Source: Chrysophaeum taylorii
Lineage: Eukaryota > Sar > Pelagophyceae > Pelagomonadales > Pelagomonadaceae
Reading direction: 5' to 3'
NCBI GenBank assembly: GCA_029834535.1
Contig: JAQMWT010000537.1
Location: 1 to 60,000 of the forward strand
DNA: 60,000 bases
The number at the start of each line of letters is the position of its first letter. Within the stretch, counting starts at the first letter, position 1. A model generated the notes under the pieces. That model worked only from the letters and a program-made list of their open reading frames with translations. It did not search any database and had not been told where the DNA came from. The translations under genes were made by a program, and so were the position numbers. Positions 3,961 to 57,263 of this stretch are shown piece by piece.

Positions 3961-4689
3961 CGATCGGATCTGTTTTTGTCGAACCCAAGTCGTACGTCGG
4001 NAGATCCGATAACCGTACCGATTTACAATCATCANCNNGNTNCCTTTNGGCNGAGTCTCGACCTAATCAAGACTCGAGTTTACGCTCGTTGCGCACGATT
4101 AAAGATACCGAAGCCCGCCGCCGGAACGTACGGTAGCCTTGGCTACGCGGGGACATGCTACGACCAAATTCGCCCCAGCTCCGGGAGAAGACGCGCGAGA
4201 AGTAGTAGCTTACGCTGCGCGCACGCTTCAAATCGAGCCCAGTCGAACAAAGTATACCGGTTATTTGTAAAATCGAAACCTGGAAAGAGGACAGGTTTCG
4301 TCGCTACGTTTGCTGAGAACGAGCAGTTGGGATGTCGAAGGAATGTGTTCTTCTTGCGAAGAGCGCGACCGGTCCGTGCTCGGGTGGCGGTTACTGCCAC
4401 GGAAGAAGTACCGACGGTCGTCACTCAAGGCGAAGTCCTTGCGATTGGCGATATCGTTAGGTACGAGGATGAGTTAAACGTCTCTACGATCAACGAACTT
4501 ACGAAAGAATGTGAAGAAGGATACGACAAGGGGGACCTTTCTTTCACCGTTTCTGTCGCTAGTCACTTGACGCGATGCGACGTCTCCCCGCCGATGCTGC
4601 TGAGCACGGTACAGAAGGACGCTACGACCGCTATGGCGGACAAGTCCACCCTCAAACGACCAGAAGGCAGCGACGATTTCGCTCGAAGG
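3961..4689 (+). pseudogene. Conserved spacer between protease and methyltransferase-like domain (element A)
   Basis: The frame open from 3826 to 4959 holds segments shared with element B (43390-43850 plus 44221-44400): TRVYAR.., VPTV.TQGEVLA.GDIVR, and LSFTVSVASHLT. The function is unknown. The N bases at about 4001-4047 blur part of it. B carries a SINE insertion inside the same spacer, and C has a diverged version at 53540-54400 on the other strand. The conserved VPTVVTQGEVLAIGDIV block suggests a folded domain rather than filler. Confidence 0.6.
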
Positions 4690-5998
4690 TCGGAAGAAGA
4701 TGAAAAGAAATGCCGCGAGATCACCGAAGCGGAGATCCGCCGCCGATATGAAAAGGTTCGATGGCTTCCAATCACTTATCGCAAGGTGGTGATGCTGTTC
4801 AGTGGAGCCGGAGGCAGTACTTTCCTGTGGTGCAGCACACACGTGTGGTCGCTATGTTACAACCTTACGGTTGATCGAATCTTATTTACCCTACGCGGAA
4901 TGGTCGTCGTCGATGTGTCGCGTCGCCACCCTGCGTACACTCCGCTCTGTGCAACTTGACCCCAGAGAGATGTGGGAAAGGAGTTACCGCTACCCACTGG
5001 ACGATGAAATTATGCAAGATGGCTGGTTTCTTCATGTGGTTGATAGAGCAGGAGGCTTCGATTATTTCTTACGTTGCACGTTTGCACCCTTACGTACGTC
5101 GTCAATTTTACGACATAACCCAGTTTGATGAGCTGTCGCGTGCGATTGTTGGTTTCAGCCATCCGCTCCATTTGCGCGCAGTTCCAAGACTTGCAAGAAT
5201 ATGCAGCAAGAGTTCGCCGCAGCACTTGGCTACGCCGACGAACGACATTTACTTCAGATGAACAATTTAGGATCATCACGAGCCGCGACAGACGCAGCTT
5301 ACACCGTTACGCGTGTCCCGCTTCGCGTAGGACCGCACCGTTCCGATTACAGATCTCTGAATCTGAAAATGACTTCGGAGTTGCTGACGATGCCCCCTGG
5401 TTTTGATTGGGCCGGCTTCTCCAGGACGACCTTGTTGAAACACTTGGCGTTCGTCGTGCCACCTGACACGATAGCCTTATTAGTGCTCGATCTGCACAAC
5501 TATGTGACCAAGGAATTTCACCTGAGCGGCGAAGCTTTGCCGTCAGCGTTGAGTCCTGCAGACCGACCGTTTGATTATTATTTACAAATTGATGAAACCA
5601 CCCTTCGTCACGTACAAGTTCCGCTGTTAAACACGCGCACACGTGTCGTAAGATGGGTGTCGAATGATGATCTCCAAGATCTCACCAAATGGAAACCTCC
5701 AGAGGTACCGTTGATTCCGCCTGCAACAGATGAGCCGGGGACGTCTCATGCTTCTTCTGCTGGCACCCCCCGACAACCAAATTTAGACGTTCCGCCAGAT
5801 CCTGAGCGAGATCGGGAACCGAAGATTAAGAGCGAGCCGAGTGTTCGTGTCAAAGGCGAGAGGATCAACAAAAGCCACCCGGAAGTGAAACGAAAATACG
5901 AGAAGAGTTCGATGTGCCATGGAAAGATGCGCCGCGCGATGCCGAGGGTGCACCACTGCCGCAGACTCCTGAGCATGTCAAGGACAACGAAGCAATGA
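4690..5998 (+). pseudogene. C5 cytosine methyltransferase-like domain of element A (broken)
   Basis: C5 methyltransferases bind AdoMet through a FxGxGG motif I and use the Cys of a PC motif IV for catalysis. Here FSGAGGST lies at 4798-4821 and SPPC at 4923-4934. A motif IX/X-like end follows (LNLKMTSELLTMP, then GFDWAGF, then HLAFVVPPDT; VVPP at 5453-5464). Compared with B, about 38 codons after GGST are missing, which shifts the frame, and another frame change lies near 5200. The GN of the usual GNAVPP is absent. The last frame (5201-5998, frame 2) runs on through a proline-rich tail and overlaps the RT frame. Confidence 0.75.
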
Positions 5999-9904: not shown

Positions 9905-9916
9905 GTCGACGCTCAG

Positions 9917-11707: not shown

Positions 11708-11844
11708 GTCCCGCGTACTTATCTCCGCCCGTCAGGCACATCCCTCCTGCCCCACAAACCCACCCACATCCTTCATGCCCCCCACACACACCCCCCTCTT
11801 AGCAGTCGACATTTAAAGACAAACAAACAAACAGACAGACAGAC

Positions 11845-16742: not shown

Positions 16743-16941
16743 GTTCTCGCGCCCGCTTTCCCTGATCGCCTTGTGGACCCCCGACTAACGATTTAACGAG
16801 AGGCCAGCGCAGTGCATGCGGCGTAGAATAGATTTAACGATAGGCCAGCGCAGTGCATGAGGCGTAGAATAATCCCAACGCCGAAGCTTGCGGGATCAGA
16901 ATCGCCAGGGATTTTTTTCAGCCGATAGGCGCTGAAAGGAG

Positions 16942-35424: not shown

Positions 35425-36304
35425 CTGTCTGTTCGTCTGTCTGTCCCTCGATTTAGGGTAAGGATCAGGTAGGCGCGAGAGTAAGGATCAGGTAGGCGCG
35501 AGAGCCAGACAGTGATCCTCCAAGCCGTCTACGGCGACCTCGCAGACTATTTCCACGACCCGCGGCGGCTCTTTCAGCGCGCCATTCTCACGCCCCGTCG
35601 AAACGATGTTGTCGATGCTGACAACGCGCGCGTGACCGCGGCCTTTTTTTCCCGGAGACGAGGCGTCGGAGTTCTTTTCGGTCGACTAGGTTGGGTCGGA
35701 AGACGACGCCTCGCTCTTTACAGTCGAGTTTTCAATTCCCTGACAGCCAACGGCATGCTGACTTTGATCGCGAGCTTAAGGTCTTCGCAACCACGACCCG
35801 TCGCACGGCCACTGCAACGGTACCAGATACCGATAAGCCCCCTCCCGGCGTCTACACGCGCACTGTAGGTGAGCTTACTGGGCCAGGTGAACTTACTGGG
35901 TTTGAGATTGGGACTAGGTGAACTGAGTGACCAGGTGAACTGGGTTTGAGATTGGGACTAGGTGAACTGAGTGACCAGGTGAACTTACTGGGACCAGGTG
36001 AACTTACTGAGGGTTTTAGAGTAAACTCAAAGGTTAGCGGCGTGTGCGGATCAAAGCAGCTTAGATTGGCGGAGGCGAGAGCGACGAGCTCGATGGAGTG
36101 GGTGTGAGCTAGGTGAACTTACTGACCAGGTGAACTTATATGAAACTTACTGGGACCAGGTGAACTTACTGGGGTTAGAGATTTGGACTAGGTGAACTTA
36201 CTGACCAGGTGAACTTATATGAAACTTATTGGGATTAGGTGAACTTGCTGGGGTTAGAGATTGGGACTAGGTGAACTTACTGGCCTGCACTTGTCTATGC
36301 TAAA
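35425..36304 (+). mobile_element. PIF1-helicase repeat unit 5
   Basis: CCCTCGATTTAGGGTAAGGA, then the helicase block VYGDLADYFHDPRRLFQRAI plus LTPRRNDVVDADNAR (35512-35660). The copy stops near 35830: the motif V-VI segment (INKSQGQT) seen in other units is deleted, since GTACCAGATAC joins straight to CGATAAGCCCCCTCCC. An AGGTGAACTTACTG array fills 35865-36290. Confidence 0.75.
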
Positions 36305-36408
36305 CGTGGACTGCTAAGAGGGGGGTGTGTGTGCGGCGCATGAAGGATGTGGGTGGTTTTGTGGGGTAGGAGGGATGTGCCTGACGGGCGGAGATAAGTA
36401 TGCGGGAC

Positions 36409-39048
36409 CTAGTCGGGGCCATCGCCGAGTCGTGGGGCAGGCGAAGAGAGGACGGGCCCCGCCCGGAGGTCGTACGCATGCTGCCGCCGGACGTATGTGC
36501 GACGAAGGGCGACGTCCTGCTGGGATCTGGCGGCCTGGGTGGGGCTCCCCGAGGCGGCGACATGGGTGAGGGCGGTGAGGGCACAGCGAGCCCGGCCTAA
36601 TGCATTTGCGATCCCCCACTCACGGTATATGCGGCGAGTTTGGGCCGCCTTTGCCTCTGTGAAGTTGGCGTAGCCGCTTGCCACCCAGGTTCGCGCAGCG
36701 ATGCGCTCTGCGCATGTTTGGGCGAGGGCGTGGCACGCCGCGCTGGCCTCACCGAAGGCACCAAAGACGAGGCCGGCGACGGTGCCGTAGCTACGTAGCC
36801 GCTGCTCGACAGGGCCCAAGAAGCCAGGCAGTGGTGCTGTACGCGGCTGGGGGATGATGGCGTCGATGCCGCGGGCGTGAGCGAGGTATTCGGAGTGGAC
36901 TTGCGCTGCGCGCCGATCGACAGGCGACGGGTGGGAGGGATGGAGGGCGTGGGCGGTGTATAACGAACCCCAAGCGAGGGTTTTGATGTCGTAGAGTTGC
37001 TCCTTGTTGTCGAGCGTGGTGAGGATGTCTGGGACGACGTGGCGACGGGCGAGATTGCCTCGGTACCGGCCGTAGAGGCGCGTGCGAATGGTAGGGGCGA
37101 CGACGTCAGCAAAGATGCCGAAAACCTCGGACAGGGCTGGGATGCCGGCCTCTTTGACGCTGCAGAGGACGCACTCGAACTGGCCGTCATGCCAGGTGGT
37201 CCGCGTTCCTCCGCGGTTGACAAGGTTGGCCTGCGTGAGAAGCACCTTGCCGTGAGCGTCGAGAACGACGTCAGTGCCCAGAATGCGAGTGCCCACGAGG
37301 CCCGAACAAGCTGGAGAGGGGTAGCCAAAGTACTGGGCACACATCTCAGCCCAGCAGCGGTTGGGGATTTGAAGGGCGGAGCTGGGCCACGAGCTGATGA
37401 ACGTGGTCGAGAAGCGATCCCATGAGGACGCAGCTACTCGAAGTGCATCGGTGACGGGAAGGGTGGCCGCAAGGCGCTGGACTGCAGTGGCCCGAGCTGT
37501 CTCGCGCTGGGAGGTTAGAGCACGCTGGAGTTGGGGTATGAGCACGGGTGTCGAGATGGTGGGGTCGATGAGGACGCCCATGGAGACGAATTCGTGGGAG
37601 AGAGGACCGTCGACGAGATGAACGTTGGCGGGGTCGCCGGAACCAGCGCCGCCGTGGGAAGCCAGCGTGGTACGGAGATCAGCCCGAAGTCCATCCCACG
37701 CAGTCTCGAGTGGTCGCCCCAGGCGGCAACCGGATGCGAGGAGGTGGTGCCAATGGTGCAACTCATTACCTGTGCGAAAAGAAGTGGCACCCAGGACCGA
37801 GGCGAGGCGGGGGAGGTAGCCAGGGACCTCCACGGCACCCGTAGGATCGCGAAGGTCGAAGAGATGTGGGAGGGCCTGGGCCGCCGTGCCAACAAAGGCG
37901 GCGGGGCTGAGGTTGGCGCAGGAGCGAATGCCACCACCCCCACTTCGAGCAGGAAGACGGAGGCGTTGGAGGACGATGCCGGTGGAGTCAAAAACCTGAC
38001 GCGGCTCTGCGCCAAGTGCTGTGGCGACGAAGCTGAGGACGGCAACGTCGAAGCGGCGGAGCGCGCTCAAGGCATTGGCGGGGTAGCAGTGTTGCGCGAG
38101 GTAATCCATGCGCGGGGCGATGCAGTAGCGGCCCAACGAGTACATGCAGTGGAGGGAGACGTTCTGGAGCTTGGTGCGAATACGGCTCATGTAGCTCACC
38201 TGAGCGTCAACCTCGCGTTGCAAGGTAGCTTCGACATAGGCATCTCCGGCGTGTCCGGGGGAACCGATGGGCCCACCGTAGATTACGAGGCCGTCGGCGA
38301 CAACGGGGATACCAGCAAGAGTGCGCGTGCCGTCCGGCGCAACTTGGACGTGGTCGTGAACATCGGGGTGATCGAGAAGACCCATGCCAAGTGCCGGACA
38401 GAACGCCACGCACTTGTCGAGGCGGAGCTCCTCGCCGCTAGCTTGGATGTCGCGGGCGTACTGCAGGAGGGCGTCGACAACCTCACGAGGGGAACCAGAG
38501 ATGACGCCGTCGTCCATGCCAAATCGGGCGTAGCCGGCACATGAACGTAAGCGGGTGTCAAGGGCCTGTGCGGCGTCATGCGTTGCCAGACAGTACGCCG
38601 GTGGATAGGCGGGGTCGCCTTGCTGGCCGCCTTCTTGAGAGTCGAAGGGGGCGCGATCGAGGCCGGTGGGGCCATGGAGGGCCACCCAGGATGCCGGCCG
38701 TAATTGCTTAAACATAAAGTGGCCAAAGGCACGCAGCTTAGCGTTGGCGTGGTTGGCGAGTTTGTCCACGATGGTCCGGCGCTTGAGCTCGTTGAAGGCG
38801 TTGCGTTTGTCCAGCTTGATGATGACCTGGTCGGGGTACTGCTCCGCGTGGGTGCGGACGCCGAAGACGAGGCGCGAGGGGCCGCCCTTGACCCCGACGG
38901 CAACGTTGATCGGGTACAGTGCCTCGGAGATCTCGGAGTGGTGGCTTCGCGCAAGGCACCGTCCAGTGGCACGGCGGCGGACGGTGCCAATGCCCATAGG
39001 TCGAACGTCAGGTGCTTGGTTAGCGTCAGCGGCGCGTCGTTTCACCAA
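36409..39048 (-). CDS. Non-LTR reverse transcriptase with C-terminal PD-(D/E)XK-like nuclease
   Basis: RT blocks: RPMGIGTVRRRATGR (residues 16-30), Asp80 in IIKLDKRNAFNEL, EGGQQGDPAYPP (139-150), and GMDDGVISG with Asp179-Asp180. The usual Tyr/Phe before xDD is Gly. Near the C-terminus, His620, Cys626 and Cys629 lie ahead of Pro673-Asp674 and Asp687-Ile-Lys689, a PD-x12-DxK spacing typical of restriction-like endonucleases that nick the target in R2-like elements. No internal stop. The ATG-equivalent at 39048 is not the true start, since RT coding continues upstream in another frame. Confidence 0.8.
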   Translation of the reverse strand: MVKRRAADANQAPDVRPMGIGTVRRRATGRCLARSHHSEISEALYPINVAVGVKGGPSRLVFGVRTHAEQYPDQVIIKLDKRNAFNELKRRTIVDKLANHANAKLRAFGHFMFKQLRPASWVALHGPTGLDRAPFDSQEGGQQGDPAYPPAYCLATHDAAQALDTRLRSCAGYARFGMDDGVISGSPREVVDALLQYARDIQASGEELRLDKCVAFCPALGMGLLDHPDVHDHVQVAPDGTRTLAGIPVVADGLVIYGGPIGSPGHAGDAYVEATLQREVDAQVSYMSRIRTKLQNVSLHCMYSLGRYCIAPRMDYLAQHCYPANALSALRRFDVAVLSFVATALGAEPRQVFDSTGIVLQRLRLPARSGGGGIRSCANLSPAAFVGTAAQALPHLFDLRDPTGAVEVPGYLPRLASVLGATSFRTGNELHHWHHLLASGCRLGRPLETAWDGLRADLRTTLASHGGAGSGDPANVHLVDGPLSHEFVSMGVLIDPTISTPVLIPQLQRALTSQRETARATAVQRLAATLPVTDALRVAASSWDRFSTTFISSWPSSALQIPNRCWAEMCAQYFGYPSPACSGLVGTRILGTDVVLDAHGKVLLTQANLVNRGGTRTTWHDGQFECVLCSVKEAGIPALSEVFGIFADVVAPTIRTRLYGRYRGNLARRHVVPDILTTLDNKEQLYDIKTLAWGSLYTAHALHPSHPSPVDRRAAQVHSEYLAHARGIDAIIPQPRTAPLPGFLGPVEQRLRSYGTVAGLVFGAFGEASAACHALAQTCAERIAARTWVASGYANFTEAKAAQTRRIYREWGIANALGRARCALTALTHVAASGSPTQAARSQQDVALRRTYVRRQHAYDLRAGPVLSSPAPRLGDGPD

Positions 39049-39296: not shown

Positions 39297-39619
39297 TGTG
39301 CCGGCAACTCCTGACCGCTAAGGCTTACCCCCCCTCTCTCGAGGCTTGATACCCGTTCAACGGGACGCCTTCCCCTATCTTCCTAGTGACATCATACCTC
39401 TCTCTTGTGAGAAGCATTCTTGCAGTATTCTTGTAGTATTCTTGCTATCATATACCATCTCTCCATCTTGTTGAGAGGCTTGGTTAGCGTGAGCAAGGTG
39501 TGTGGCGAGCATATCCGACCCCGAGTCCGTGTATTCCTCGTTCAGTGAGGTCTAGGACGAGTCGGTGAGTACCCCCTTTGTCACCCGGGGGTCGGGAGTG
39601 GTTTTTCTGTGCCGCCATA
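39297..39619 (+). repeat. 5' LTR of element B (323 bp)
   Basis: TGTGCCGGCAACTCC...GCCGCCATA. About a dozen mismatches separate it from the 3' LTR by eye. Both copies end CATA where element A has CACA, so the terminal CA has become TA in this sublineage. Confidence 0.92.
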
Positions 39620-40049
39620 CGTGGTGGAACACACGAGATCGTGCGACTACATCGGTCGCCGACGAGCGAGTGCTGCCGTACGTGTTGTATTACGCGGTCC
39701 GGATTTGTACGTGCGCCCTGATCAAGCACACGGAGTTCCAGTGGACCGGTTTGCGTTGCGAAAATACGCGAGCGTTGTTTGTGTTCGTGCGATCCCAGTG
39801 ACGGCGAACACGCGTGCGAGTTGGAATCGCAGCGCATTCTCCCGGGAATTGATTTGGTATAGCTGAACGGTGGAAACTGTTTAGCGAGTGGGATCGCTAC
39901 CCACGGGCATTTTTGATTTGCCAGCGGATTGGAATTCCGCGAGTGCTGTTTTTACAGCGACAGATAGCGTTGTTGGAATCAACGTGCATTACTTCGAGTG
40001 ATCGGATCCGGACGTATTTCGAGACTCCTGATCGATATTTTGATACAGT
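39620..40049 (+). other. Untranslated leader of element B with candidate primer site
   Basis: 39622-39639 reads TGGTGGAACACACGAGAT, the likely primer site. The remainder has short frames only. The stretch GCGACTACATCGGTCG resembles GCGACTATATCGGTCG at the same place in element A (211-226). Confidence 0.55.
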
Positions 40050-40436
40050 ATGGATATAAACGCAGACGTGCGTGAGGAAGAATCTCCTCCCGTTCTTCCC
40101 GCCGCCCCTGAGATAGACCGCGAGGAAGGTGAATTAAGAGAGGCCGAGGCAGTCGACGTTGCTGACGTGCCCCCTGACGTGCCTCCGGATACTGCCATTT
40201 TTTCGCCGTTGAGTCCAACGACCCCGGACCGTGGCGAGCGTGTTACGATTGAGCGCGGATCTGCAGCCCGAAGTCGACTTCGTGAAGACCTCGAGCGGAG
40301 ACGTCGCGAAAATGAACGATTAGCTGAGCTTTTTGCTCGTGAAAGGGCTGAAGGGACAGAGGAAGCGGCTCGACGAGAAGTTGATATGCTCAATGATGCT
40401 TTACAGCACGAGATTGAGACCTCAGACCCTACGTGA
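40050..40436 (+). CDS. gag: Start of Gag, element B (acidic then coiled coil)
   Basis: The ATG at 40050 is the first one after the leader in a good frame. It gives 128 residues: an acidic, proline-rich start (MDINADVREEESPPVLP) and a strongly charged coiled coil (LREDLERRRRENERLAELFA). The frame stops at 40434, while the next frame (from about 40425) continues the same coiled coil (LREEVERFRRERDELLAERT). A one-base indel or a frameshift therefore joins it to the main Gag ORF. Confidence 0.6.
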   Translation: MDINADVREEESPPVLPAAPEIDREEGELREAEAVDVADVPPDVPPDTAIFSPLSPTTPDRGERVTIERGSAARSRLREDLERRRRENERLAELFARERAEGTEEAARREVDMLNDALQHEIETSDPT

Positions 40437-43400
40437 AGAGGTTGAACGATTTCGTCGTGAACGAGATGAATTGTTAGCCGAACGTACGCGTCGGGAGAGT
40501 AGACGCGAACGACCCGTGAGTCGACCCGAACCGGAGACGCCCGTGAGGCCGCCTGAACCGGAAAGGAACACTGAAACGGGGAATGAACCTCCGCCCCGAG
40601 TCGATACGGAGACTGATGGTAGGGCGGAAGTTGAGAATAAAGGTACGAAAATTTTACGGGGATTATCGCGGGGAATATCGCAGACGGTTGCGGACGCCTT
40701 CGAAAAGGGCAACTTGAGCCGATCCCGTCGACCCACCTCCAGCTTGAAGCCTGACAACTTCAAGCTCGTCATCGACGGCCGAGACCAACGGCAATTCAAT
40801 TTGGATTCGGCGGCGATGATGCATACTTTAGCAGATGACCATTACTCGGCCGAGAAATTACGTTACCTACTACCTGTGCATTTACGGGACACCGTTGCAC
40901 CAATTTTTGAGGAACACTTGCAGAAATACGAGGAGCTCTGCGATGAGCTACCGCACGGTCCGTCGTTTTACTTGAAGTTGGATACTGACGATGAAGAGCA
41001 TGGGGCCTCGGTTCGTCGCATCCGTCGTCTTAACAAGACGTATTGCGATAAGATTTTGGATTATTTTAGATCGACTTGCCGACCTCCGCGCACGCAGCAG
41101 GACCTGCTCGACAAGCTGCGGGAGGTCACCCAGGCTTCAGTTCCGAAGAAGTCTGGGGAGCGGCACGTCCAGGCGTATTGTACCAGATTCCAATCGGAAG
41201 CCTTGGAGTTTTGTTCCGTGTCCAGCCGCACGATGGATGATGTCGATATCCTCGACCAGCTTATCAGTGGATTGACATCCAAGGAGTTGAGGACCCGTGT
41301 GCGGACTATGAGGAGCGGACATCCAGACAGCTACGTGACTTTTAAGTCGATGGTAGCGCTTATCACGCGACTCGAGAACGACTTACGAAAGTTGATGGAG
41401 GAAGAGAAGGACAAAGGCCCTCCTAATCCGAAATCGAATAAACCGCCGCGAGGGCGGGGAGGTCGAGCTATGGCCTCCGATCAACAAGCCAAGCAAGATG
41501 CGGATAAACCGTCTGGGAATACGGATCCGCTGATCTTACGAGATCCTTTTTCGTGGGGCAAGAGGACGTGCCCGCACTGTGGGTTCTTCTGGACCACCCA
41601 TGATGAAGATGAACACGGAAATCGCGTGATTTGCAACCGCGATCCGGATCGTTACTACTGCGCGATGTGGCAGCGTATTCGTAAGCAGAAGAAGCAGCCC
41701 ATATCACGTTCCGATTGGGCGAAGCGCGATGATGCATCTCATGCGAACGCCACGCGCGGATCGGAGCCTTCTAATGAACTTCGAACAGCCCTCACCGATC
41801 TTGGAACCACAATGGCGACCATGGTGAGCGAGGTCAGAGGCATCAAAGATACTACGTCGCTTTCTACACGACAGCGAGACGGACGATCACCTTCTAGACG
41901 ATCGTCGCGACGACATCGAAGCCAGAGTCCTGATCGAAAGGCCAATACTCCTCAAAGCAGCCCGAGTCCTCGTCGTCACCGGAGCTCTAGTCGCAATTCG
42001 CGCCGGCGCCGACGTCATCGACATTACGATGACGAGTATGACGGAGGCAGATATCAGGATAGTTCGGGACATTCGAGCGCAACTTTCGCGTTCCAATCTT
42101 TATGCGACGCGCCGCCATTGTCGGGGGTTGTCTTTTACCCGACGGCGCGCCCCGCCCGAGTCTCCGATGATGTTGCCGATGTTGCTGTGACGAGCAGCCA
42201 TCGTTTGCAACAGGAGCAAAATACCACCAACGCTCGGATCGTTCGGTGGCCTTCTACATCGTATGTGGAAGCAATGTCAGATGCTACTTGGGATTCTCCG
42301 CACTACTGGGGAGACTCAGATTCGGAGACCGACGAGCCCATGCTGCAGGTTCCAGTGTCCCCACATTCGTCAATGTGCGTGTCTTGCAGGGCAGTTCACG
42401 ATGATGACGTTAGACCTTTTGAGTTGACGTCGGGGACGACGTCTTCTTTTCCTACGCCCCCCCCCCCCGAGCCCGTTTTAGCCGATGTTTTAGCCGATGT
42501 TTTAGCCGACACCGTTTTGGTCGCAGCAGAGCAGACCACAGCGGCGCCGATGGAGGAGAAGTTGACGGGAATGTCCGATTTGATGGACGAGAAACGACGA
42601 TTGCCAGAAGAGATAAAGGAGGAAGTATATGTGCCTCCGATTGAGAAGTGTCAGAATTCGTTGTCAGCGAAACTGGGGAATGAGGAAGCGGCCGAAGCGG
42701 CGAGCGCCAATATAGATTCAGCGGCGAGATGTAGAACGCCAGATATGGCAGCGGTGACGATGCAGATGCCGGGCGATGCGAAACCGGAGATACGATGTCA
42801 TCACACTGCACTGTCGCCGAGCGATGGGGAAAAGATTGAGCAAGACCTCATCACCATCGGTTGCCTGGACCCTGGTACACTTACGTTTATAGTTGGTCAC
42901 ATTTATAGACGACGAGACGGGCCGAATTTGGCAACGACTTTAGGCGTGGATGGAATGGCCGGTGTCTCCTATATTTGTCGTCGGATGGTTGAAAAACTGG
43001 AAAAGGATAGCATCATCCTTGACCGGGGCGATCTTCCAGTCGAGCGCACCCTGTGCGGGTCAGGATTGAGCAAGACGACTATCCACAAATGGGTCGCATT
43101 GCGGATTGCGCTTGCGGTCGACGTGGCCGTTCCAGTTGTTGCTATTGTGGCCGATACTAATCATTTATTTTTGCTGGGAGCGCGCGATATTCGAGTGTTG
43201 GGAGCCATAGTGGACTACCCGCGAAATCGCTTTGCGTTTCTACGCACACAAGTCGCTTACGGGCGCAAGAAGTTGAAGGTGCAGGATCGACGAGTAGATT
43301 CTCCGATTTTGATGTTCAGAACAACTTATGACGAGAGCAATCCCGTGGTAGTTCAGGTTTATGGGCAACAGCACCATGCGATGCAGCAGAGCCTGAGCAC

Positions 43401-43865
43401 AGTTGAGAACCGAGTCTACGCTCGCTTGTGCAAGATTGAAGACTTCCAGCGTCGACCGCCGAAACGAGCGGGAGCTTCGACGACTTGGGGAGTCCCTCCA
43501 GTTACGCCTTCTCAAAATTCGAACCGCGATGCCTATGAAGTGATAGCCTATGCTGCGCGCACGATGAAGGTCGAGCCTGGGCGCACCTACTGCGTGCCGG
43601 TCGCTCTTTCAGAGCCCATGGAAACTGGGCAAGTTTTCGTTGCTACGTCTTCTGGGTACGAGCAACTCGGGGTAGTCGATGGAATGTGTTCTTCTCCTGA
43701 GGATCGTGACAAGTTCGCAGCTCGAGTGGCGATATCCTCTACCCAGGATGTACCGACCGTGATTACTCAAGGTGAAGTCCTTGCTTTGGGCGACATTGTT
43801 CGTTTTGATGACGACCTGAATGCTGAGACGGTCGACGATTTAACGAAGGATGGTGAAGCCGAATC
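40333..43865 (+). CDS. gag: Gag and protease-like polyprotein, element B
   Basis: Useful coding starts near 40425. Blocks in order: coiled coil, then a Gag core (residues about 130-340: KPDNFKLVIDGRDQRQFNL, YLLPVHLRDTVAPIFEEHL, HVQAYCTRFQSEALEF). A zinc-binding-looking cluster follows (CPHCGFFWTTHDEDEHGNRV with ICNRDP..YYC), unlike the classical CCHC knuckle, then an Arg/Ser-rich linker. A retropepsin-like fold comes last: CLDPGTLTFI, GVDGMAGVSYI and, after 70 residues, FLLGARDIRVLGAIVDY. The active-site triplet D[ST]G is DGM in all family members. The open frame runs on into the SINE and stops at 43911. Confidence 0.8.
43852..43865 (+). repeat. 14-bp target duplication of SINE-like copy 1 (left)
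   Basis: GGTGAAGCCGAATC here and again at 44221-44234. Both copies are in the same reading frame. Confidence 0.95.
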
Positions 43866-44220
43866 GCCGACCGCGTGGTTGCGATGGAGGACGGTGCCTC
43901 ATGAATCCTGAGCCTTGCGAGGGCATCCGCCCTCCCGGCGTAGGTTGGCACCTATTCGCCTCCCGGGCGGGCTGGTTGGCAGCCAGAACGTTCGCAGTGG
44001 GACGGGGTATGGCCGGGGGGCGCAGACGGAAGGTTATCGACGAGTTGGTTGTCAGTCACATCGCGGTCTCCTCGTCGCATGGCGACAAGCTTGATGATCA
44101 CTCTCCGCCGACCCACCTTTCGGCGCCCCTCGTCTACAGGCCCGTGATTCCGGACTGGCTCCTGTCGGTCCGGCCTGGCTCCCATGCTCGGGAGAGGTCT
44201 GAAGTTAGTTAGTTAAGTTA
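43866..44220 (+). repeat. SINE-like retroposon copy 1 (355 bp) with GTTA tail
   Basis: Begins GCCGACCGCGTGGTTGCGAT and ends GAAGTTAGTTAGTTAAGTTA. The full-length 5' end known from other copies (CCTTACCCTGATC) is missing a few bases. It is flanked by a perfect 14-bp duplication. Poly-frame ORFs in it (such as 43850-44212) are present in all copies but stop at different places, so I do not treat them as genes. Confidence 0.9.
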
Positions 44221-44234
44221 GGTGAAGCCGAATC

Positions 44235-45829
44235 TAACAAGGCTAACTTATCATTCACTGTTTCGGTCGCAAGCCATCTTACTCAAGGCAATGCGGCTCC
44301 CGAACCGATGCTTTTGAGCTCACTGCAGAAGGCGTCTCCTTCTGCCGATAAGAAGAAGAATTCTCGTCAAGAATCGCTCGGTAACGACGATTTCGACCGA
44401 CGAACTGACGAGGAGGAAAAGAAATGCCGAGAAGTTACATATGGCGAGATTCGCCGAAGGTTTGAAAAGGTCCACTGGGTGCCGATCACGTATCGCAAGG
44501 TTGTGATGCTCTTTAGCGGCGCCGGTGGAAGTACTTTAGGACTGCAACGAGCGAACGAGTTGTGCGGGACGTCGTTTCGAGTCGTCCTTGCTCTTGACTC
44601 TTCAACAGCTGCCAACAAGGTTCATCCGAAGAATTTTCCGAAGATACCTGTTGTTCAGCACACGCTCTGCGGACGATATGACTCGACCCTCCGGTTGATC
44701 AAGGCTTATTTGCCTGAAGCGGAATGGTCATCGTCGATGTGTATAGCGTCTCCACCCTGCGTTCATTCAGCACTTGCAACTTGACATCCAGGGATGTTGG
44801 CAGGGGTGTTACGGCCACTAACTGGACGATGAAGCTGTGCAAAATGGCTGGCTTCATGATGTGGCTGATCGAACAGGAGGCGTCCATTATTTCGTATATA
44901 GCGCGCTTGCGCCCTTACGTGTACGTCGTCATTTTCATGATATCACGCCCACTCTGATGAGCTCTCGCGTGCGATTGTTGGTTTCCAGTCACCCAGTGTA
45001 CTTGCAAGAGGCTCCGAAGACATGCGTGAACATGCAACATAATTTTACTGCAGCTTTAGGTTATGCTCATGAACGCCACCTGCCCCGGCTGAATAATCTT
45101 GGCTCGTCCCGAGAAGCAACAGATACGGCTTACACCGTTACGCGAGTTCCTCTTCGTTTGGGACCGCATCGCTCGGACACTCAGCCTTTGACTCTCGAGA
45201 TGACGGCCGAGTTGCTCACGATGCCGGTGGACCATGATTGGGCTAGCTTGTCTAAGACAGATTCGTTCAAACATTTGGCGTCTGTCGTCCCTCCAGACAC
45301 TCTTGCGATTTTAGCAGTCGATCTGCACAACTCCGTGACCAGAGGTTTCCGCCAAAGTGGCGAAGTCCTGCCGACCGCGTTGAGCCCGACAGATCGATCC
45401 TTTGAGCAGTATTTGCGAATCTCCGACACCACCTTTCGTCACGTACAGATTCCGCAGTTAAATACGCGTACTCGTGTCGTTAAGTGGGTGTCAAAAGATG
45501 ATCTCCAGGATCTCACTAAATGGGAACCGCCGGAAGTTCCTATGCTTCCGCTTCCAACAGATGCGCCGGGGACGGCTCATGCTTTTTCTGCTGGGCCCCC
45601 CCGACAATCAAAAGTTGACGTTCCGCCGGATCCTGAACCTGAACAGGAGCCGAAAGTAAGGAGCGAGCCGAATGTCCGCGTCAAAGGTGAAAAGATCAAT
45701 AAGAGCCACCCAGAGGTGAGGTTCAAATACGAAGAAAGTTCGATGTGCCATGGAAGGATACGCCGCGCGACGCGGACGGTGTACCGTTACCGCAGACTCC
45801 CGAGCACGTCAAGGACAATTGTGCGATGA
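44235..45829 (+). pseudogene. C5 cytosine methyltransferase-like domain of element B
   Basis: This is the best-preserved copy. KVVMLFSGAGGSTLGLQRAN gives motif I (44512-44535 for FSGAGGST), and VVLALDSSTAANKVHPKNFP fits motifs II-III. SPPC at 44749-44760 is motif IV with its catalytic Cys. RHLPRLNNLGSSRE is a possible motif VIII region. LTLEMTAELLTMP, DHDWASLSK and HLASVVPPDTLAILAVDLH (VVPP at 45284-45295) correspond to motifs IX-X. ENV (motif VI) and the GN of motif X are not visible. One base is lost after SPPC and another shift lies near 44940. Outside the domain a proline-rich tail leads to the RT junction. Activity would need AdoMet-binding and Cys chemistry, both recognisable before decay. 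Confidence 0.8.
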
Positions 45830-46276
45830 AAGTCGTAATGTAATTCCGACGAAGGAAGAAGTTGAAAAGGTTGTTCGAGATATGGGAATTCCCGACAACC
45901 CGCATCTGGATGATGATGCGAAGATGATGTTGAGCCATTGCGTGCAATACGCGTGGGCTTTCTTTGATCCGATTGTGAGACCCGTGGACTCGCCACCGGC
46001 TTCTCTACGATTTAAAGACGCAAACCCACGACCGATCAAGATGACGCCCTATTGGTTGACGCCAGCAAAGCTCGAGTGTCTCAGAAACCAGGTCACTGAG
46101 TGGTGTCGCGATGGAGTCATCCGACCGGCGAACTCTCCGTGGGGATTCCCTGTACTGATGCTGCCTAGGAAGGGAGCAGAGGCCGAGACGTCGAATGCTT
46201 TTCGTGCTGCAGTTGACTTGCGTCAGCTCAATGATCAGCTGGTCAATGACAGTTGGCCGAATATTCGTCAAGATGA
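45745..46276 (+). pseudogene. pol: Reverse transcriptase, N-terminal part of element B
   Basis: VPWKDTPRDADGVPLPQTPE in frame 1 matches the start of Pol in A. A 5-base insertion near 45835 adds a stop and moves the frame, after which IPTKEEVEKVVRDMGIPDNP continues through RPANSPWGFPVLMLPRKGAE to WPNIRQDD. The SINE-like insertion then splits RT just before the catalytic Asp block. Confidence 0.85.
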
Positions 46277-46667
46277 CGATCGCTAACCGTTGGTTGCGAT
46301 GGAGGACGGCGCCTAACACGCTTGCTCCCTTCGGCGGCCCCGGCCGTCCCGGAGTGAGACGGTGCCTGCTCGCCTCCCGGGCTGGCCGGTTAGCACCCGG
46401 AAAGTCCGCGCTGGGATGGGGTTCGCTCGGTTGGGCAGAACGCGGCGGACAGGTCGATTGTTCGTGGACCAACACGTTTGCGGCCTGCGACGCTTTTGCA
46501 CGACTTCGCACAAGACCGCGCGCAGTGGCGGTCCGTCATCAACGAGTCCTCGTTCCTCGCCTCAGCCCCAACTGCGTGATTTTCCTCTGTGATTCCGGAT
46601 CGGCTCCTGCCTGTCCGGCCTGGCTCCCCATGCTCGGGAGAGGTCTGAAGTTAGTTAGTTAGTTAGT
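46277..46667 (+). repeat. SINE-like retroposon copy 2 (diverged) inside RT
   Basis: It starts near GATCGCTAACCGTTGGTTGC and ends GAAGTTAGTTAGTTAGTTAG. The first 40 and last 60 bases match the other copies, while the middle (46316-46580) is largely different, so it is a distinct subfamily or a chimera. The target in A is AAGATGATGC; here AAGATGA lies left and TGATGC right, so any duplication is only about 3 bases. Confidence 0.8.
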
Positions 46668-47230
46668 GATGCTTTTGGCTTTTCTTGCCATGCGCCGTTG
46701 GCGGTCGTGCATTGATATTCGATGGGGTTATCATAACTTACGTTTGGACGCCGCTGCTCAGGACGCTGCTACGATGGTTAGTCCACTTGGAGCCCATAGT
46801 TTCTTGCGCTTGCCTCTAGGAGTAAAAACAGCAGGAGCTCTCTTTTGTAAGCAGATGGCTACCGATTTTTCCACATGGATGTATAAGGACTTGGTCGCGT
46901 TTGTCGACGATATTATGATGGAATCGGATGAACTCCATCGACATTTACAAGTTTTGATTGAAGTGTTGTGCCATTTAGCACAGCGAGGATATAGTGGACG
47001 AACTTCGAAGTTCCACCTCCTCAAGGATGAAATCGAGTTTTTGGGACATATTTCGACTCCGGAAGGCTTGAAGCCGAATCCCAAGACGTTAGAAGCGCTG
47101 CAGCAGATGCCGATTCCCGGTACGTTGCCCAATACGTCCCCGAAGACCCAGATTCGATCTTTCATTGGCATGAGCAACTATTGCCGCCGATATGTGAAGA
47201 ATTATTCGAAGATTGTGGAGCCGCTTAGCG
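46668..47230 (+). pseudogene. pol: Reverse transcriptase core of element B
   Basis: LAFLAMRRWRSCIDIRWGYH carries the first catalytic Asp; LVAFVDDIMMESD is the FVDD box. FLGHISTPEGLKPNPKTLEA and SFIGMSNYCRRYVKNYSKIV complete the thumb and connection. The frame breaks near 47230, where A reads RRLCLEGVKFEW. Confidence 0.9.
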
Positions 47231-47231
47231 A

Positions 47232-49030
47232 TTGTGTCTTGAAGGCGTTAAGTTTGAGTGGACGCCTGAGTGCCAAAAGGCATGGGACACGATCATCGAA
47301 GCTTTGGTGGACTCTCGCGGAGTTTATCATCCTGACTACGATCTTCCTTTTCAGATCCGCTCGGATGCTTCCAAGGATGGTCTGGGTGCGTATCTTTTTC
47401 AGCTCGTGGAAGTCAAGGACGAAACCGGCAAGGTGACACGAGAGGAACGAGTAATTGAGTATTGGAGCCGAGCTGTGCCGAAAGAGATGCGGAACTATGA
47501 GCCTCGCCGGCTAGAGCTACTGGCAGTTATTCTTTCTCTTGAGCATTTCCGCTCTTATATCGAAGGTCACAAGACGATCCTTGAAACAGATCATCGCAAC
47601 TTGACGTTTTTACGAAAGGCGAAGCACTCGTCTGGGCAGTTGGCTCGATGGGCGATGCGGCTCGCCAATTTTGATCCTGAATTGGGCTACAAGCCAGGGA
47701 AGTCGCCGGGAATGAGTATCCCTGACTGTCTCTCTCGCAATCCTATAGATCATGTCATCGAGACGGACGAGTTTGGTGAACCCTTGAACCACGCGTATCT
47801 AGTGTGCCAAGAACTCCCTCGCTCTGTCGATGATGAAGGAGTACCTTTACCTGGGTGCCATGTCATTCTGTCGTTTGTTACGACTGAGTTGCCTGTGGGG
47901 AAAGAGGAAGAAGACATCGATTATCCGATGCAATTGGTCACGTCTCATGCTACGAAACAACGTCAGAAGCAGCGTCTGCAGACCCAGCCTAGTATTTTCC
48001 GTGATGCCGATGATTACCAAGAGTACATCCACAAGATTCCGGATAATTTGACTTTGGAAGAGATAGCCAAAGAGCAGATCACTGATGCTACTTGCGAGGA
48101 CATTCGTTATCGCATGGCTCAGGGCCATTCTCTTCGTCGGTACGGAGCCAATTATCGCTATCAAGTGGTGAAAGGAGTTCTCTACCGTGCCGCACCCGAC
48201 TTGCACCCGATGATAGTCGCACCCCGAACTTTACGGACGCGCATCATCCGATTGTACCATGACACACCTCTCAATGGTGGTCATATGGGTCGTCAAAGTA
48301 CAGTGCAGTCGATACTTGAACGTTTTTGGTGGCCCCACATGTCTAATGAGGTGGGTGCTTACATTGCTGGTTGCATAGTGTGCAAGAAAGCTCGTACGCC
48401 TGAACCAAAGAGAGCAGGCCTGCTTCAGCATCCGGTGTATGATGGTGATTGTGTCGTCCTTTGTATGGATTTGTTTGGACCTTTGCCCAGTGCTGGTCCC
48501 GAGACATATCTCATCGTCTTTTTTGATCCATTTTCTCATTTCTTGATTCTTGACGTACTACACCATAAGACTGCTGAGTCAATCCTCGAGTCTTTTGTCG
48601 CGAATATATTACTCAAAGGTTATCTACCTCAGAGGATTCGTACCGACAATGGGAAAGAGTTCGTCAACAAGTTGATGGAAGAGTTTTGTCGTCTTTTCAA
48701 TGTTCGGTATAGTACCACGATTCCGTATCATGCTCAGGCTAATCCTGCGGAAAGGGCCAACCGCTTTATCAAGGCTTTCCTCCGTGCGTGCCTTCTAAAC
48801 CGCAAGATCACGGAATGGCCCGAATTCGCGGAGTACATTGCTTTCTGTTACAATCGTAAATTTGCTCCAGGAACTCGGATTTCACCTTTCATGCTTTGTC
48901 TTATCCGACGGCCTTTATTGCCAGCCGATTGCACGATCATGGATCTTGATGTCCGCCGCCTGCCGAAAACTCGCTCCGATGTTGTGGCAGAGACTCGCGA
49001 GAGGCTGAAGTTCTATACCGCCACGGTGAA
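47232..49030 (+). CDS. pol: RNase H and integrase of element B
   Basis: RNase H: RSDASKDGLGAYLF, RRLELLAVILSLEHF, ETDHRNLTFL. Integrase zinc site: IRLYHDTPLNGGHMG and CIVCKKA. Catalytic triad: CMDLFGP, RTDNGKEF and NPAERANRF. All catalytic residues are kept. An indel near 49030 shifts the C-terminal domain to frame 2, so the annotated open frame past this point (to 49439) is out of frame. It overlaps no start codon; it depends on upstream translation. Confidence 0.9.
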
Positions 49031-49768
49031 CAACCTCGTGAGAAGGCTCTTCGTAAACAACGTCTCGCCTATAATGCGGACCATGTTGATGTGGAGTATG
49101 AAGAAGGCTCACATGTTCTGTTCTAAATTCCTTTTCTTCAGAACAAGCTTCGACCGGAATGGCGCGGTCCATTCGTTATTTTGGAACGCTTGTCCCCGGT
49201 CACTTACAGGATCGAGTCTCTTGATTCTCCTCCCGAACGCCGCTTTGTTCATGTTAGCCAGATCATTCCTGCGATGGTTTCTCCAGTGGTCGATCGAGCT
49301 GTGCCCAAGCCCAAGGAGACCTTTCGGGATGATTACAATCATGGTAAGTTCGTTATCTTTCGGATTCCGGATAACAAACGGTTCGATTGGCGAAAGAAGA
49401 TTTACGTCGCTGAAGTTTATGAACCCTATGATTTTGTGAATGACCGAGTCGCTCTGCATTTCCATGCTGATCTTGGTCCCCATGACAAGGTTTCTTATTA
49501 CAAGCCTACATCACATCTCCCTACTCGCAAGCTTAAGCCGGAATACAAGGACGTGGACGGTCGCAGTTTCACCGACAAGACCAAGGTCAACAACAGTACC
49601 ACTCCCTGTGTCACCGACTTCGCCCCGTATGAGATCGATGTGTTGATTCCTAAGTTCACTTTGCGTGGTGGACGCGTTCTTGGGCCTGTCGTCGAACGTG
49701 TCTACAAGAAGATTCGTTCCCGAGACGCTCATTCAGCCAAGGCTCGTGCTTCTCGCCGGACTCGCTGA
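49031..49768 (+). pseudogene. pol: Integrase C-terminal domain of element B
   Basis: From 49181 the frame reads ERLSPVTYRIESLDSPPERR, KFVIFRIPDNKRFDW, YVAEVYEPYDFVNDRVALHF and FTLRGGRVLGPVVERVYKKI, about 80 percent alike to A by eye. The 49031-49180 part (PEWRGPF equivalent) is shifted. The domain is conserved in C too, despite decay elsewhere, so it mattered to the family. Confidence 0.85.
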
Positions 49769-49798
49769 GGGCAGCTCGTGTTCTCACCAAGGGAGTCC

Positions 49799-50121
49799 TG
49801 TGGCGGCAACTCCTGACCGCTAAGGCTTACCCCCCCTCTCTCGAGGCTTGATACCCGTTCAACGGGACGCCTTTCCCTATCTTCCTAGTGACATCATACC
49901 ACTCTCCTGCGAGAAGCATTCCGGCAGTCTTCTTGTAGCATTCTTGCTATCATATACCATCTCTCCATCTTGTTGAGAGGCTTGGTTAGCGTGAGCAAGG
50001 TGTGTGGCGAGCATATCCGACCCCGAGTCCGTGTTTTCCTCGTTCAGTGAGGTCTAGGACGTGTCGGTGAGTACCCCCTTTGTCACCCGGGGGTCGGGAG
50101 TGGTTTTTCTGTGCCGACATA
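49799..50121 (+). repeat. 3' LTR of element B (323 bp)
   Basis: TGTGGCGGCAACTCC...GCCGACATA, preceded by AAGGGAG as a short purine run. It is followed by the GGGGG duplication. Confidence 0.92.
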
Positions 50122-52392: not shown

Positions 52393-53010
52393 TTATTGGA
52401 AAATAAAAGCTTCATTGATCGGTTCCCCGTCTTCATCTTTCTCGATGAATTTGTCGATAGGGTTGCGCGACCGACAATCCGGAATACGCATGCCAGGGGA
52501 GCTTCCAGGCTTGTATCCGAGCTCCCGGTCGAACGCAGCAAGCCGCATAGCCCATCGCGCTAACTGTCCAGACGTATGATTCGAATCCCGCAGAAACGTT
52601 AAATTACGATGATCCGTCTCTAACTTCGTCTGATGACCTTCGATGTAAAATCGGAAATTTCCGAGAGCAGAGAGTACTGCGAGGAGTTCCAGGCGCCGAG
52701 GATCGTACTTCCTCATCGACTTAGGCACGGTTCGACTCCAGTACTCGATAACTCTCCCTTCGATTCTTTCTCTTCCATCGTCGTCAACGACTGGTACTTT
52801 TTGAAATAGGTAAGCACCCAACCCATGCGCGGAAGCATCAGTTCGAATGTAAAAAGGTAACGAGTAATCAGGATGATAGACGCCCTTCGAAGTGACAATA
52901 GCCTCGATGATGGCATCCCAAGCTTCCTGACACTCTTTCGTCCACTTGAATTTCACGTTTGGCAACGTCAGTTGTATTAATGGCTCTCCGACTTTCGCAA
53001 AATTCCTTAC
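52393..53010 (-). pseudogene. pol: RT connection end and RNase H of element C
   Basis: Starts at the SINE junction with VRNFAKVGEPLIQ-type text, then VKFKWTKECQEAWDAIIEAI, RTDASAHGLGAYLFQK, RRLELLAVLSALGNFRFYIE, ETDHRNLTFL. The RNase H Asp-Glu-Asp set is present. Everything before the connection domain is missing. Confidence 0.85.
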
Positions 53011-53379
53011 ATAACTAACTAACTAACTTCGGACCTCTCCCGGGCATGGGAGCCAGGCCGGACCGACAGGAGCCAGTCCGGAATCACGGGCCTGTAGACG
53101 AGGGGCACCGAAAGGTGGGTCGGCGGAGAGTGATCATCGAGCTTGTCGCCATGCGACGAGGAGACCGTGATGTGACTGACAACCAACTCGTCGATAACCT
53201 TCCGTCTTCGCCCCCCGGCCATACCCCGTCCCACTGCGAACGTTCCGGCTGCCAACCGGCCCGCCCGAGAGGCGAATAGGTGCCAACCTACGCCGGGAGG
53301 GCGGATGCCCTCGCAAGGCTCAGGATTCATGAGGAACCGTCCTCCATAGCAACCATGCGGTCGGCGATCAGGGTAAGGG
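53011..53379 (-). repeat. SINE-like retroposon copy 3 at the deletion junction of element C
   Basis: Minus-strand text runs from CCTTACCCTGATCGCCGACC to a (GTTA)n tail at 53011-53025. It is nearly the same as copies 1 and 4. No target duplication longer than 3 bases is seen, and element C differs on the two sides (methyltransferase motif I versus RT connection). A deletion next to or through the insertion therefore seems likely. Confidence 0.85.
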
Positions 53380-54482
53380 TATAGGACAATGCGAAATGAA
53401 CTGCCATATAGCTCATTGCATCGCCGGATACCCAACGTTGATCCTCCAGCGCCAGCAAAGTAGACGACGACAAACGTGTAGGTGATGGGTATCCAAACCA
53501 AGGAGGCGTGCTTAGATAGCAGCTCCTTAGCAGTCGCCTCCATCTCCATTTCTGGTGTTTTTTTCACTTCTTCATCTGGAGGTGGCTGAGGAGGAGGTCT
53601 GTCACTCAAGACATCCTCCTCGACTTCATCGTCGTCAACAGCAGCCGTAAGAGTGGCATGACACACGTCATCCGTGGCTTCTAGCTGCATGTTGACACAT
53701 CCTTCATGCGGCATGATCTCGCCTTCGACCACCGGGACTTCGGGGTCGATACCAATGGGTTCGTCACCAATGTGCTCCACAGCCACATGAATTTCGTTGG
53801 GCTCGTCAGCGCAATACGATGAATACGAACCAGGTACAAGGCGGCGATCTTGGAGGAGTGACCGATAAGGTCGGAATACGTGACCCTTTTCCAGCGGCAC
53901 ATCGTACTCCATCTCCAATAAGTACGGTTGGCTTGGAAGAAGAAATCGAGTACTCGTCACGTACGCGAAATGAGGGATGATATCTTCCTCGTCTGCAGGG
54001 CATTTGAGTTGGTCTTCCGCTTTTTCAGCAGTCTGATCACCGGGAGGAACGTGATGGTGACTCGCTCTGATACGAATAGAGCGCAATAGACTGTCATAAC
54101 TCCACGGTTTACTAACTGGCGCCCAAGTTTGGATATTTCCGTATTGCACAGCAAGCTTAACTGTCGGGAACATCTGCACTACCTGCGGAGTCGCATCGAA
54201 TGCATCATTGTAAAGGACAATTCCATGCTGGTCTTGTGGCGAGGCGGAAGTCCGGTTCTTGTGAACTCCAATGGTCACTTCAGAACGCCGATAAATAGCT
54301 CTCTCTGTCGCATAATCCAAAATCGCACCCAAGAGACGTAATTCTCGTGCTCCTAATAGTAACTGCCCATTCGTTTGACCGACGAAGAACATGAGCAGCA
54401 TGGATGTCGTCGGCACCAAGGAGATCCGGAGAATGACCCATTCTCGAATCTCGAATAGCAGCTCCCGAACCTCCTGACCCAT
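53380..54482 (-). pseudogene. Protease end, spacer and methyltransferase motif I of element C
   Basis: LLLGARELRLLGAILDYATE is the protease C-terminal strand. The spacer holds a diverged VPVVEGEIMPHEG block and an acidic stretch (DDDEVEEDVLSD). It ends HASLVWIPITYTFVVVYF then AGAGGSTLGIRRCNELYGSS (FAGAGGST at 53436-53459), the same sequence context as motif I in A and B. After FRIVLY the SINE begins. Motif IV and the rest are absent. Confidence 0.75.
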
Positions 54483-57230: not shown

Positions 57231-57263
57231 GACCGCGCTTTGCCCGGATAATAGGCTTAATCC

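What the first reader, a model, noticed from the sequence alone, without database searches (positions are those of the whole stretch)
44235..45829. Ty3/gypsy retrotransposon family carrying a C5 cytosine methyltransferase-like domain between protease and RT
Element B encodes FSGAGGSTLGL (motif I), LALDSSTA.. (II-III), SPPC (IV) and a motif IX/X-like end with VVPP, placed between the protease-like domain and RT. A and C carry the same domain at the same position (A with motifs I, IV, IX/X; C with motif I only), so capture predates the split of the three copies. Retrotransposons with captured methyltransferases are, as far as I recall, known only from a few algal and dinoflagellate lineages. An element that could methylate its own or host DNA would change how silencing is understood in this host.
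Basis: partly seen in the sequence, partly recalled or inferred. Interest (0 to 1): 0.92.

Follow-up and report, generated by a model that had tools for sequence, protein, structure and literature searches.

The report
Algal retrotransposons carrying DNA cytosine methyltransferases
Hundreds of copies of a jumping gene in a marine alga carry, fused to their copying enzyme, a conserved domain related to enzymes that put methyl marks on DNA, and a second, unrelated kind of jumping gene in the same genome carries one too, which points to repeated capture of a silencing-type enzyme by genomic parasites.

Summary
Confirmed. Element B (39297-50121) is a Ty3/gypsy LTR retrotransposon with a C5-cytosine-methyltransferase-like domain (about 44476-45345) between a protease-like stretch and RT. 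B itself is broken, but the genome has many open copies. Fifteen of 15 scanned domain copies match Pfam DNA_methylase (best E 8.4e-10); a profile comparison with DNMT2-type enzymes gives 96.8%. In four of four long ORFs scanned the domain shares one frame with RT. A motif IV pattern with the catalytic Cys occurs 426 times genome-wide, against 12 with Arg or Tyr. Between lineages omega is about 0.06, near RT (0.04), below the linker (0.20-0.24): the domain is kept by selection. The host is the pelagophyte Chrysophaeum taylorii. A copia-type family in the same genome carries a second, dissimilar C5-methyltransferase domain. Retroelement-borne DNMTs are known from dinoflagellates and a charophyte (PMC5890265), so this is a new variant of a known kind. 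Activity is untested, motif VI is inferred, and B-lineage copies show no CpG decay footprint, which argues against stable CpG methylation.

The parts
39297..39619 (+). 5' LTR of element B (TGTG...CATA)
   Evidence: 311 of 323 nt identical to 49799-50121; GGGGG on both outer flanks as a possible 5-bp target duplication (low complexity)
40333..43911 (+). gag/protease part of element B: 1192-aa ORF
   Evidence: no Pfam match at E<=0.1. Protease-like motifs (VDGMA near 42.94k, LLGARDI near 43.2k, approximate) were read by eye from recalled family features; no profile supports them
43863..44223 (.). 361-nt short insertion with a GTTA-type tail inside the element B coding region, upstream of the methyltransferase domain
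   Evidence: 95-96% repeats at 53009-53368 and 57254-57629; 14-nt duplicated flank GGTGAAGCCGAATC
44476..45345 (+). C5-methyltransferase-like domain of element B, broken into three frames
   Evidence: boundaries by alignment with open copies
44512..44529 (+). motif I FSGAGG (AdoMet binding)
   Evidence: F and the three Gly in 32 of 32 open copies
44749..44760 (+). motif IV SPPC with catalytic Cys
   Evidence: 31 of 32 open copies; 426 genome-wide pattern matches
44865..44879 (+). LIEQE, inferred counterpart of motif VI ENV (in another frame than motif IV in B)
   Evidence: Glu in 32 of 32 open copies; spacing to the Cys fits, spacing to motif VIII is about 9 shorter than in DNMT2 rows; hhalign placement not exact
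44966..44974 (+). RVR, motif VIII
   Evidence: both Arg in 32 of 32 open copies
45825..47436 (+). RT-proximal and reverse transcriptase region (RVT_1), interrupted by a second insertion at about 46285-46665
   Evidence: RVT_1 E 2.6e-12 in 46666-47436; relatives align to 45825-46280 and again from 46675; ends of the insertion resemble the first one by eye but it is not among the repeats
47232..49439 (+). RNase H, integrase zinc-binding and integrase core
   Evidence: RT_RNaseH 2.8e-27, Integrase_H2C2 2.4e-17, rve 2e-12
49799..50121 (+). 3' LTR of element B
4597..5905 (+). element A (lineage II): broken remnant of the same domain
   Evidence: LTR-like repeat 2-188 / 9721-9905, 91%
53400..53651 (-). 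element C: motif I end of the same domain, truncated
   Evidence: open relatives L068-L073 carry the whole domain

Best explanation
A Ty3/gypsy lineage of this pelagophyte captured a C5-cytosine methyltransferase domain into its Pol polyprotein, between protease and RT, before lineages B, II and C split, and has kept it under purifying selection since. Shown: the fusion with RT in one frame, the homology, the conserved motifs I, IV, VIII and IX/X, the copy number and the selection. Inferred: motif VI is the invariant Glu of LIEQE/TLEQE, so the domain is probably a working methyltransferase. Inferred further: being part of Pol it would be made with RT and integrase and reach the element's own DNA before or at integration, adding methyl groups to it (or to the host target) and so tuning silencing, copy number or site choice in favour of the element. 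A copia-type family of the same genome seems to have done the same independently with another C5 methyltransferase.
For: PF00145 is matched by 15 of 15 domain copies scanned, best E 8.4e-10; L068 scores 39 bits in two stretches, the one shown covering the IX/X region. hhalign of the domain alignment against 20 C5 methyltransferases (19 found with host DNMT2 as query, plus host L002): probability 96.8, E 2.5e-10. One continuous frame holds the methyltransferase and RVT_1 in four of four long ORFs scanned, with RNase H too in L049 and L053. Motif residues are invariant or nearly so in 32 distinct open copies. B against II: dN 0.112, dS 1.90, omega median 0.059 over 144 pairs, one with undefined dS. 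One B copy against two II copies by region: methyltransferase 0.053 and 0.066, RT start 0.038 and 0.041, linker behind the domain 0.204 and 0.240. 426 genome matches to the pattern for A-(S or T, mainly)-P-P-C-(V/I)-(H/Y), 11 with Arg and 1 with Tyr in place of Cys, reversed-pattern controls 0.
Against: The middle of the domain (motifs V-VII) is not covered by the Pfam stretches shown. ENV reads EQE; its placement rests on spacing (Cys to Glu 38 against 40-47, but Glu to Arg 32 against 41-42 in the scorable DNMT2 rows) and on an hhalign that puts ENV in a gap or, by my count, misses by one column. The family alignment is shallow (Neff 1.65). No fold support: the one model made (three window pieces) had mean pLDDT 40. 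PDB profile matches are weak, best E 0.37, and NCBIfam dcm matches are far under cut-off (19.5-23.1 against 100.65). No CpG depletion in B and II loci (o/e 1.18, 1.30), and no excess of single C>T changes at CpG among 30 B copies (18/6386 at CG against 15/5529, 11/3984 and 13/5274 at CA, CC, CT; A>G is higher, 87/20448). No expression or methylation data were examined. The 32 copies were chosen for an open domain, which favours conserved residues.
Confidence: 0.72

Rival explanations
1. The domain is a C5-methyltransferase relative that is no longer an enzyme: it binds AdoMet or nucleic acid and serves as a structural, targeting or regulatory part of Pol, as DNMT3L does for DNMT3 (DNMT3L recalled).
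For: The likely ENV reads EQE, the residue after the Cys is V or I instead of Q, and there is no mutational trace of DNA methylation in B copies.
Against: Cys (31 of 32), the candidate Glu (32 of 32) and both Arg of motif VIII (32 of 32) are kept, and 426 of 438 motif IV pattern matches keep the Cys; a scaffold would not need the Cys.
Confidence: 0.17
2. It methylates RNA (for example the element's own RNA or its tRNA primer).
For: The hhalign partner set is DNMT2-type, two of the four weak PDB matches are DNMT2-type, and no DNA footprint is seen.
Against: The comparison set was DNMT2-type by construction; the other two weak PDB matches are named cytosine-specific methyltransferase, and NCBIfam gives dcm, under cut-off. 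No tree was made.
Confidence: 0.08
3. The resemblance is accidental: another Rossmann domain with a chance FxGxGG and SPPC.
For: For element B alone the Pfam score is below cut-off, as it is for three long ORFs.
Against: 15 of 15 genomic domain copies match PF00145 and no other family at E<=0.1; in L068 and L069 Pfam matches two stretches, one in the IX/X region; hhalign E 2.5e-10.
Confidence: 0.03

Closest known systems
KnitGypsy-Dnmt3 of Klebsormidium nitens (de Mendoza et al. 2018, PMC5890265; passages and section 10 read)
   Same: C5 methyltransferase inside the Pol ORF of a Gypsy-type element, several copies, purifying selection on the domain (the paper gives Ka/Ks < 0.2)
   Different: That domain is Dnmt3-class and its element has a DIRS-like repeat structure (figure legend); here there are ordinary LTRs, the domain lies between protease-like part and RT, its weak profile neighbours are DNMT2- and dcm-type (no tree made), and the host is a stramenopile
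SymbioDIRS-Dnmt3 and SymbioLINE-Dnmt of Symbiodinium (PMC5890265)
   Same: Retrotransposon-borne DNMTs; the DIRS ones methylated CG de novo in yeast in that paper (section 10)
   Different: DIRS and LINE elements; no activity is known for the present ones
ParB-methyltransferase accessory gene in a Sola1 DNA transposon of Ectocarpus (PMC12477816; passages read)
   Same: DNA methyltransferase carried by a stramenopile transposon
   Different: DNA transposon, separate gene, predicted N4-cytosine or N6-adenine type
Copia-type family of the same genome (L003-L008, L062-L067)
   Same: C5-methyltransferase-like domain behind a protease-like DGGAS motif, purifying selection
   Different: RVT_2 polymerase, canonical PCQ and ENV but altered motif I; no detectable similarity to the gypsy domain

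Membership tests
C5-cytosine methyltransferase (PF00145) | Profile match above the curated cut-off of 22 bits | tested here: met
   Single gypsy domains whose scores were shown: 27, 28.7, 38.6, 39; longer ORFs 22.7-24.4 and 22.9. Not met by element B (20.3) and by three longer ORFs (20.3-21.7)
C5-cytosine methyltransferase (PF00145) | Motif I FxGxGG and motif IV PC with catalytic Cys | tested here: met
   32 of 32 and 31 of 32 distinct open copies
C5-cytosine methyltransferase (PF00145) | Motif VI ENV | tested here: inconclusive
   Candidate Glu invariant (32 of 32) but followed by Q-E. Cys to Glu 38 against 40-47, Glu to Arg 32 against 41-42 in DNMT2 rows that the search expression scored sensibly (it failed or misplaced a motif in 8 of 20 rows for these two distances)
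C5-cytosine methyltransferase (PF00145) | Motif VIII RxR and motif IX/X | tested here: met
   R.R 32 of 32; IX/X stretch matched by Pfam in L068 and L069
C5-cytosine methyltransferase (PF00145) | Methyl transfer to C5 of cytosine | not testable with these tools
   Needs an assay
Ty3/gypsy LTR retrotransposon | LTRs | tested here: met
   323 nt, 96% identical
Ty3/gypsy LTR retrotransposon | RT-RNase H before integrase | tested here: met
Ty3/gypsy LTR retrotransposon | Aspartic protease domain | tested here: inconclusive
   Motifs by eye only; no Pfam match
KnitGypsy-Dnmt3 type | Methyltransferase of the Dnmt3 class | not tested
   No tree with all DNMT classes was made; no Dnmt3 among the four PDB profile matches at E<=1
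Ty1/copia (second family) | Integrase before an RVT_2 polymerase, between LTRs | tested here: inconclusive
   RVT_2 E 1.6e-38 and 9.1e-40; integrase core before it only 17.2 bits, under the cut-off of 32.6; no LTRs within the six 9-9.5-kb stretches

The most novel reading that the evidence does not exclude
Two unrelated LTR retrotransposon superfamilies in one alga have convergently fused different C5 methyltransferases directly behind their protease, so that the enzyme is packaged with RT and integrase and methylates the cDNA before integration: new copies arrive already marked, a self-imposed and transient mark that leaves no CpG decay in the genome.
Probability: 0.2. Interest if true: 0.85.

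Novelty: new variant of a known kind. Interest (0 to 1): 0.62.

Why it matters
It extends captured DNMTs in retrotransposons to a stramenopile and, by profile, to a copia-type element, and gives a case with hundreds of copies and strong purifying selection, where the benefit to the element should be real. A compact (70.8 Mb) host with deposited PacBio and RNA-seq runs makes the old question, why a parasite would carry the enzyme of its own silencing, directly testable.

Tried and rejected
Loss of motif VI: I first read YVVNF as the ENV position, which would mean a missing Glu. Profile alignment puts that stretch just before motif VIII, and LIEQE is the better candidate by spacing to the Cys, so the idea of a dead enzyme on that ground was dropped.

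Relatives elsewhere: two searches of about 5.8 billion proteins gave nothing for the gypsy domain (none of 4706 candidates at E<=1e-3, lengths about 550-1760 aa only; none of the 7994 scored candidates at 0.01, lengths about 160-510 aa only). Two scans of viral contigs gave no confirmed relative, one for each family. The third protein search, with host DNMT2, did find the host's own annotated protein, so the host's proteins are at least partly in that database.

Structure: a model from three window pieces had mean pLDDT 40 and was not searched. CpG footprint: none in B copies; lineage II gave only 7 usable sequences and was not scored. The 6 C-lineage and 12 copia loci have lower CpG o/e (1.01, 1.03) and higher TpG/CpA (1.21, 1.14) than 5 host loci (1.32, 0.86), which may be mild decay or codon use. 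LTRs of the copia-type family were not found. Rfam found nothing in the window. A search for RVT_2 in the own genome (150 of 1670 candidates scored) was not used to say what share of copia elements carries the domain.

Rows dropped: of 57 gypsy loci put to the script, 36 had an open domain with both ends recognised; 4 of these were the same places as others, leaving 32; 19 were printed as partial (three of them the window's own A and B copies) and 2 gave no match. Of the 32, alignment A1 used 15. Among 12 copia-family loci, 10 gave the domain start (whose script then stopped with an error) and 7 were aligned.

Full report
What is there. Element B of the window is a full-length but broken LTR retrotransposon, 39297-50121, with 323-nt LTRs that are 96% identical and RVT_1, RNase H, integrase zinc-finger and integrase core matches in that order, hence Ty3/gypsy. 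In B it runs over three frames. A 361-nt repeat sits just upstream of it, and a second insertion of about 380 nt, with similar ends by eye, interrupts the RT part. B alone scores under Pfam's cut-off (20.3 against 22 bits).

Host. The window is contig 537 of a 70.8-Mb genome in 697 contigs with 84 light-harvesting protein matches, some of them single exons. A DNMT2-type protein read from contig C634, which is 102313 bases long, is identical over 360 aa to a Chrysophaeum taylorii protein whose longest contig has that same length. The published assembly has 71 Mbp on 702 contigs (PMC10366177, passages), and the species is a pelagophyte.

The family. B's domain recovers 150 matches, all that were scored of 744 candidates, from 71 to 100% identity, in two main groups: one near B and one near 73%. 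Element A belongs to the second (lineage II). Element C belongs to a third lineage, with 150 matches scored of 587 candidates, whose open copies carry the whole domain at 40-42% identity to a B copy. A motif IV pattern, A-x-P-P-C-(V/I)-(H/Y) with x mostly S or T, has 426 exact matches (208 forward, 218 reverse); with Arg in place of Cys there are 11 and with Tyr 1; the reversed-pattern controls have none. Other changes of the Cys were not counted. The domain is in one uninterrupted frame with RVT_1 in four long ORFs scanned of four, with RNase H matches in two of them.

Homology. Fifteen of 15 domains match PF00145 and nothing else at E<=0.1, best E 8.4e-10. In L068 and L069 (C lineage) Pfam matches two stretches; the one shown is 223-286 on profile 260-321 for L068, the IX/X region. 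NCBIfam gives dcm at 19.5-23.1 bits for three gypsy domains, far under its cut-off of 100.65. hhalign with 20 C5 methyltransferases, 19 of them relatives of the host DNMT2, gives probability 96.8, E 2.5e-10 over 151 columns, although the family alignment is shallow (Neff 1.65). A PDB profile search gives only C5 methyltransferases, but at E 0.37-1.

Catalytic residues. In 32 distinct open copies (of 57 loci examined; 19 partial, 2 without a match, 4 duplicates) the motif I Phe and glycines, both motif IV prolines, the motif VIII arginines and the motif IX Glu are invariant, and Cys is 31 of 32. Motif VI is the weak point. The first E of LIEQE/TLEQE is 32 of 32, 38 residues after the Cys and 32 before the first motif VIII Arg. 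The DNMT2 rows that the search expression scored sensibly have 40-47 and 41-42, so the first distance fits and the second is about 9 short. hhalign puts the ENV in a gap beside it or, in one setting and by my count, misses by one column. I take it as motif VI, as an inference.

Selection. Nei-Gojobori (own script): B against II, 144 pairs, median dN 0.112, dS 1.90, omega 0.059; C against C2, 9 pairs, omega 0.066; within-lineage medians 0.136 (B), 0.169 (II), 0.190 (C) and 0.782 (C2, three pairs at dS near 0.019) (within-lineage pairs are counted in both orders there). B against C and II against C have saturated dS in all 54 and 24 pairs. By region for one B copy against two II copies the domain (0.053, 0.066) lies near the RT start (0.038, 0.041) and under the protease-side part (0.140, 0.156) and the linker behind it (0.204, 0.240). 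dS near 2 is close to saturation, so omega is approximate.

Second family. Of the 57 PF00145 matches of the genome (123 of 474 candidates scored), the best two are host genes (L001 DNMT2-type; L002, 65 bits). The next ones that I opened are ORFs with a domain bearing FTLPCQ and ENVPPN. In L067 one 1952-aa frame holds a DGGAS protease-like motif, this domain, a weak integrase match and RVT_2, that is a copia-type order. Seven of seven aligned copies keep P, C, Q, E, N, V and R; omega is 0.094-0.170 in 17 of 21 pairs and 0.219-0.271 in the other four. Spacing Cys to Glu is 40 and Glu to Arg 44. The two retroelement domains show no mutual similarity (BLAST 13.5 bits; hhalign probability 0.1), so two captures are the simplest reading. 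I did not check each of the 57 matches for its element type.

Function. A retroelement-borne DNMT that methylates CG has been shown in yeast for SymbioDIRS-Dnmt3, while the Gypsy one of Klebsormidium gave an inconclusive result (PMC5890265, section 10). Here I infer methylation of the element's own cDNA or of the integration target. The mutational record does not support stable CpG methylation: B and II loci have CpG o/e 1.18 and 1.30, and single C>T changes in 30 B copies are about equally frequent at CA, CC, CG and CT (0.0027, 0.0028, 0.0028, 0.0025; 57 events), below the A>G rate (0.0043). This fits a transient mark, another substrate, efficient repair, or no activity.

Novelty. Searches of the paper library listed no paper that I could recognise, by title, abstract start or passages, as a report of DNMT-bearing retrotransposons in pelagophytes or other stramenopiles. 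The opinion paper PMC6338049 names stramenopiles in passing (passages). [quoted passage not shown] PMC9998398 was seen in passages and PMC3145265, on stramenopile epigenetics, only in listings. Most subscription journals and preprints are not held. I rate it a new variant of a known kind.

Noticed in passing
43863-44223, 53009-53368, 57254-57629, 16920-17138: A repeat of about 360 nt with a GTTA-type tail (95-96% copies; the fourth is a 78-79% partial match), inserted in element B and at the break of element C; the copy in B has a 14-nt duplicated flank, as a SINE would. A second insertion in B (about 46285-46665) has similar ends by eye only.
   Followed up: partly
G000, loci L062-L067 (outside the window): A copia-type family with its own C5-methyltransferase domain between a protease-like motif and the polymerase.
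   Followed up: partly
36301-38211 and 9905-11815: A 1.9-kb stretch is repeated in inverted orientation at 97%; the 879-aa ORF 36409-39048 over it looks like a LINE-type reverse transcriptase by eye.
   Followed up: no
L002 (G000:C621): A host gene with a strong DNA_methylase match (65 bits) within a long acidic protein, no other Pfam domain at E<=0.1; class not determined.
   Followed up: no
L067:957-1390: Two identical 217-nt tandem copies just upstream of the copia-type ORFs.
   Followed up: no
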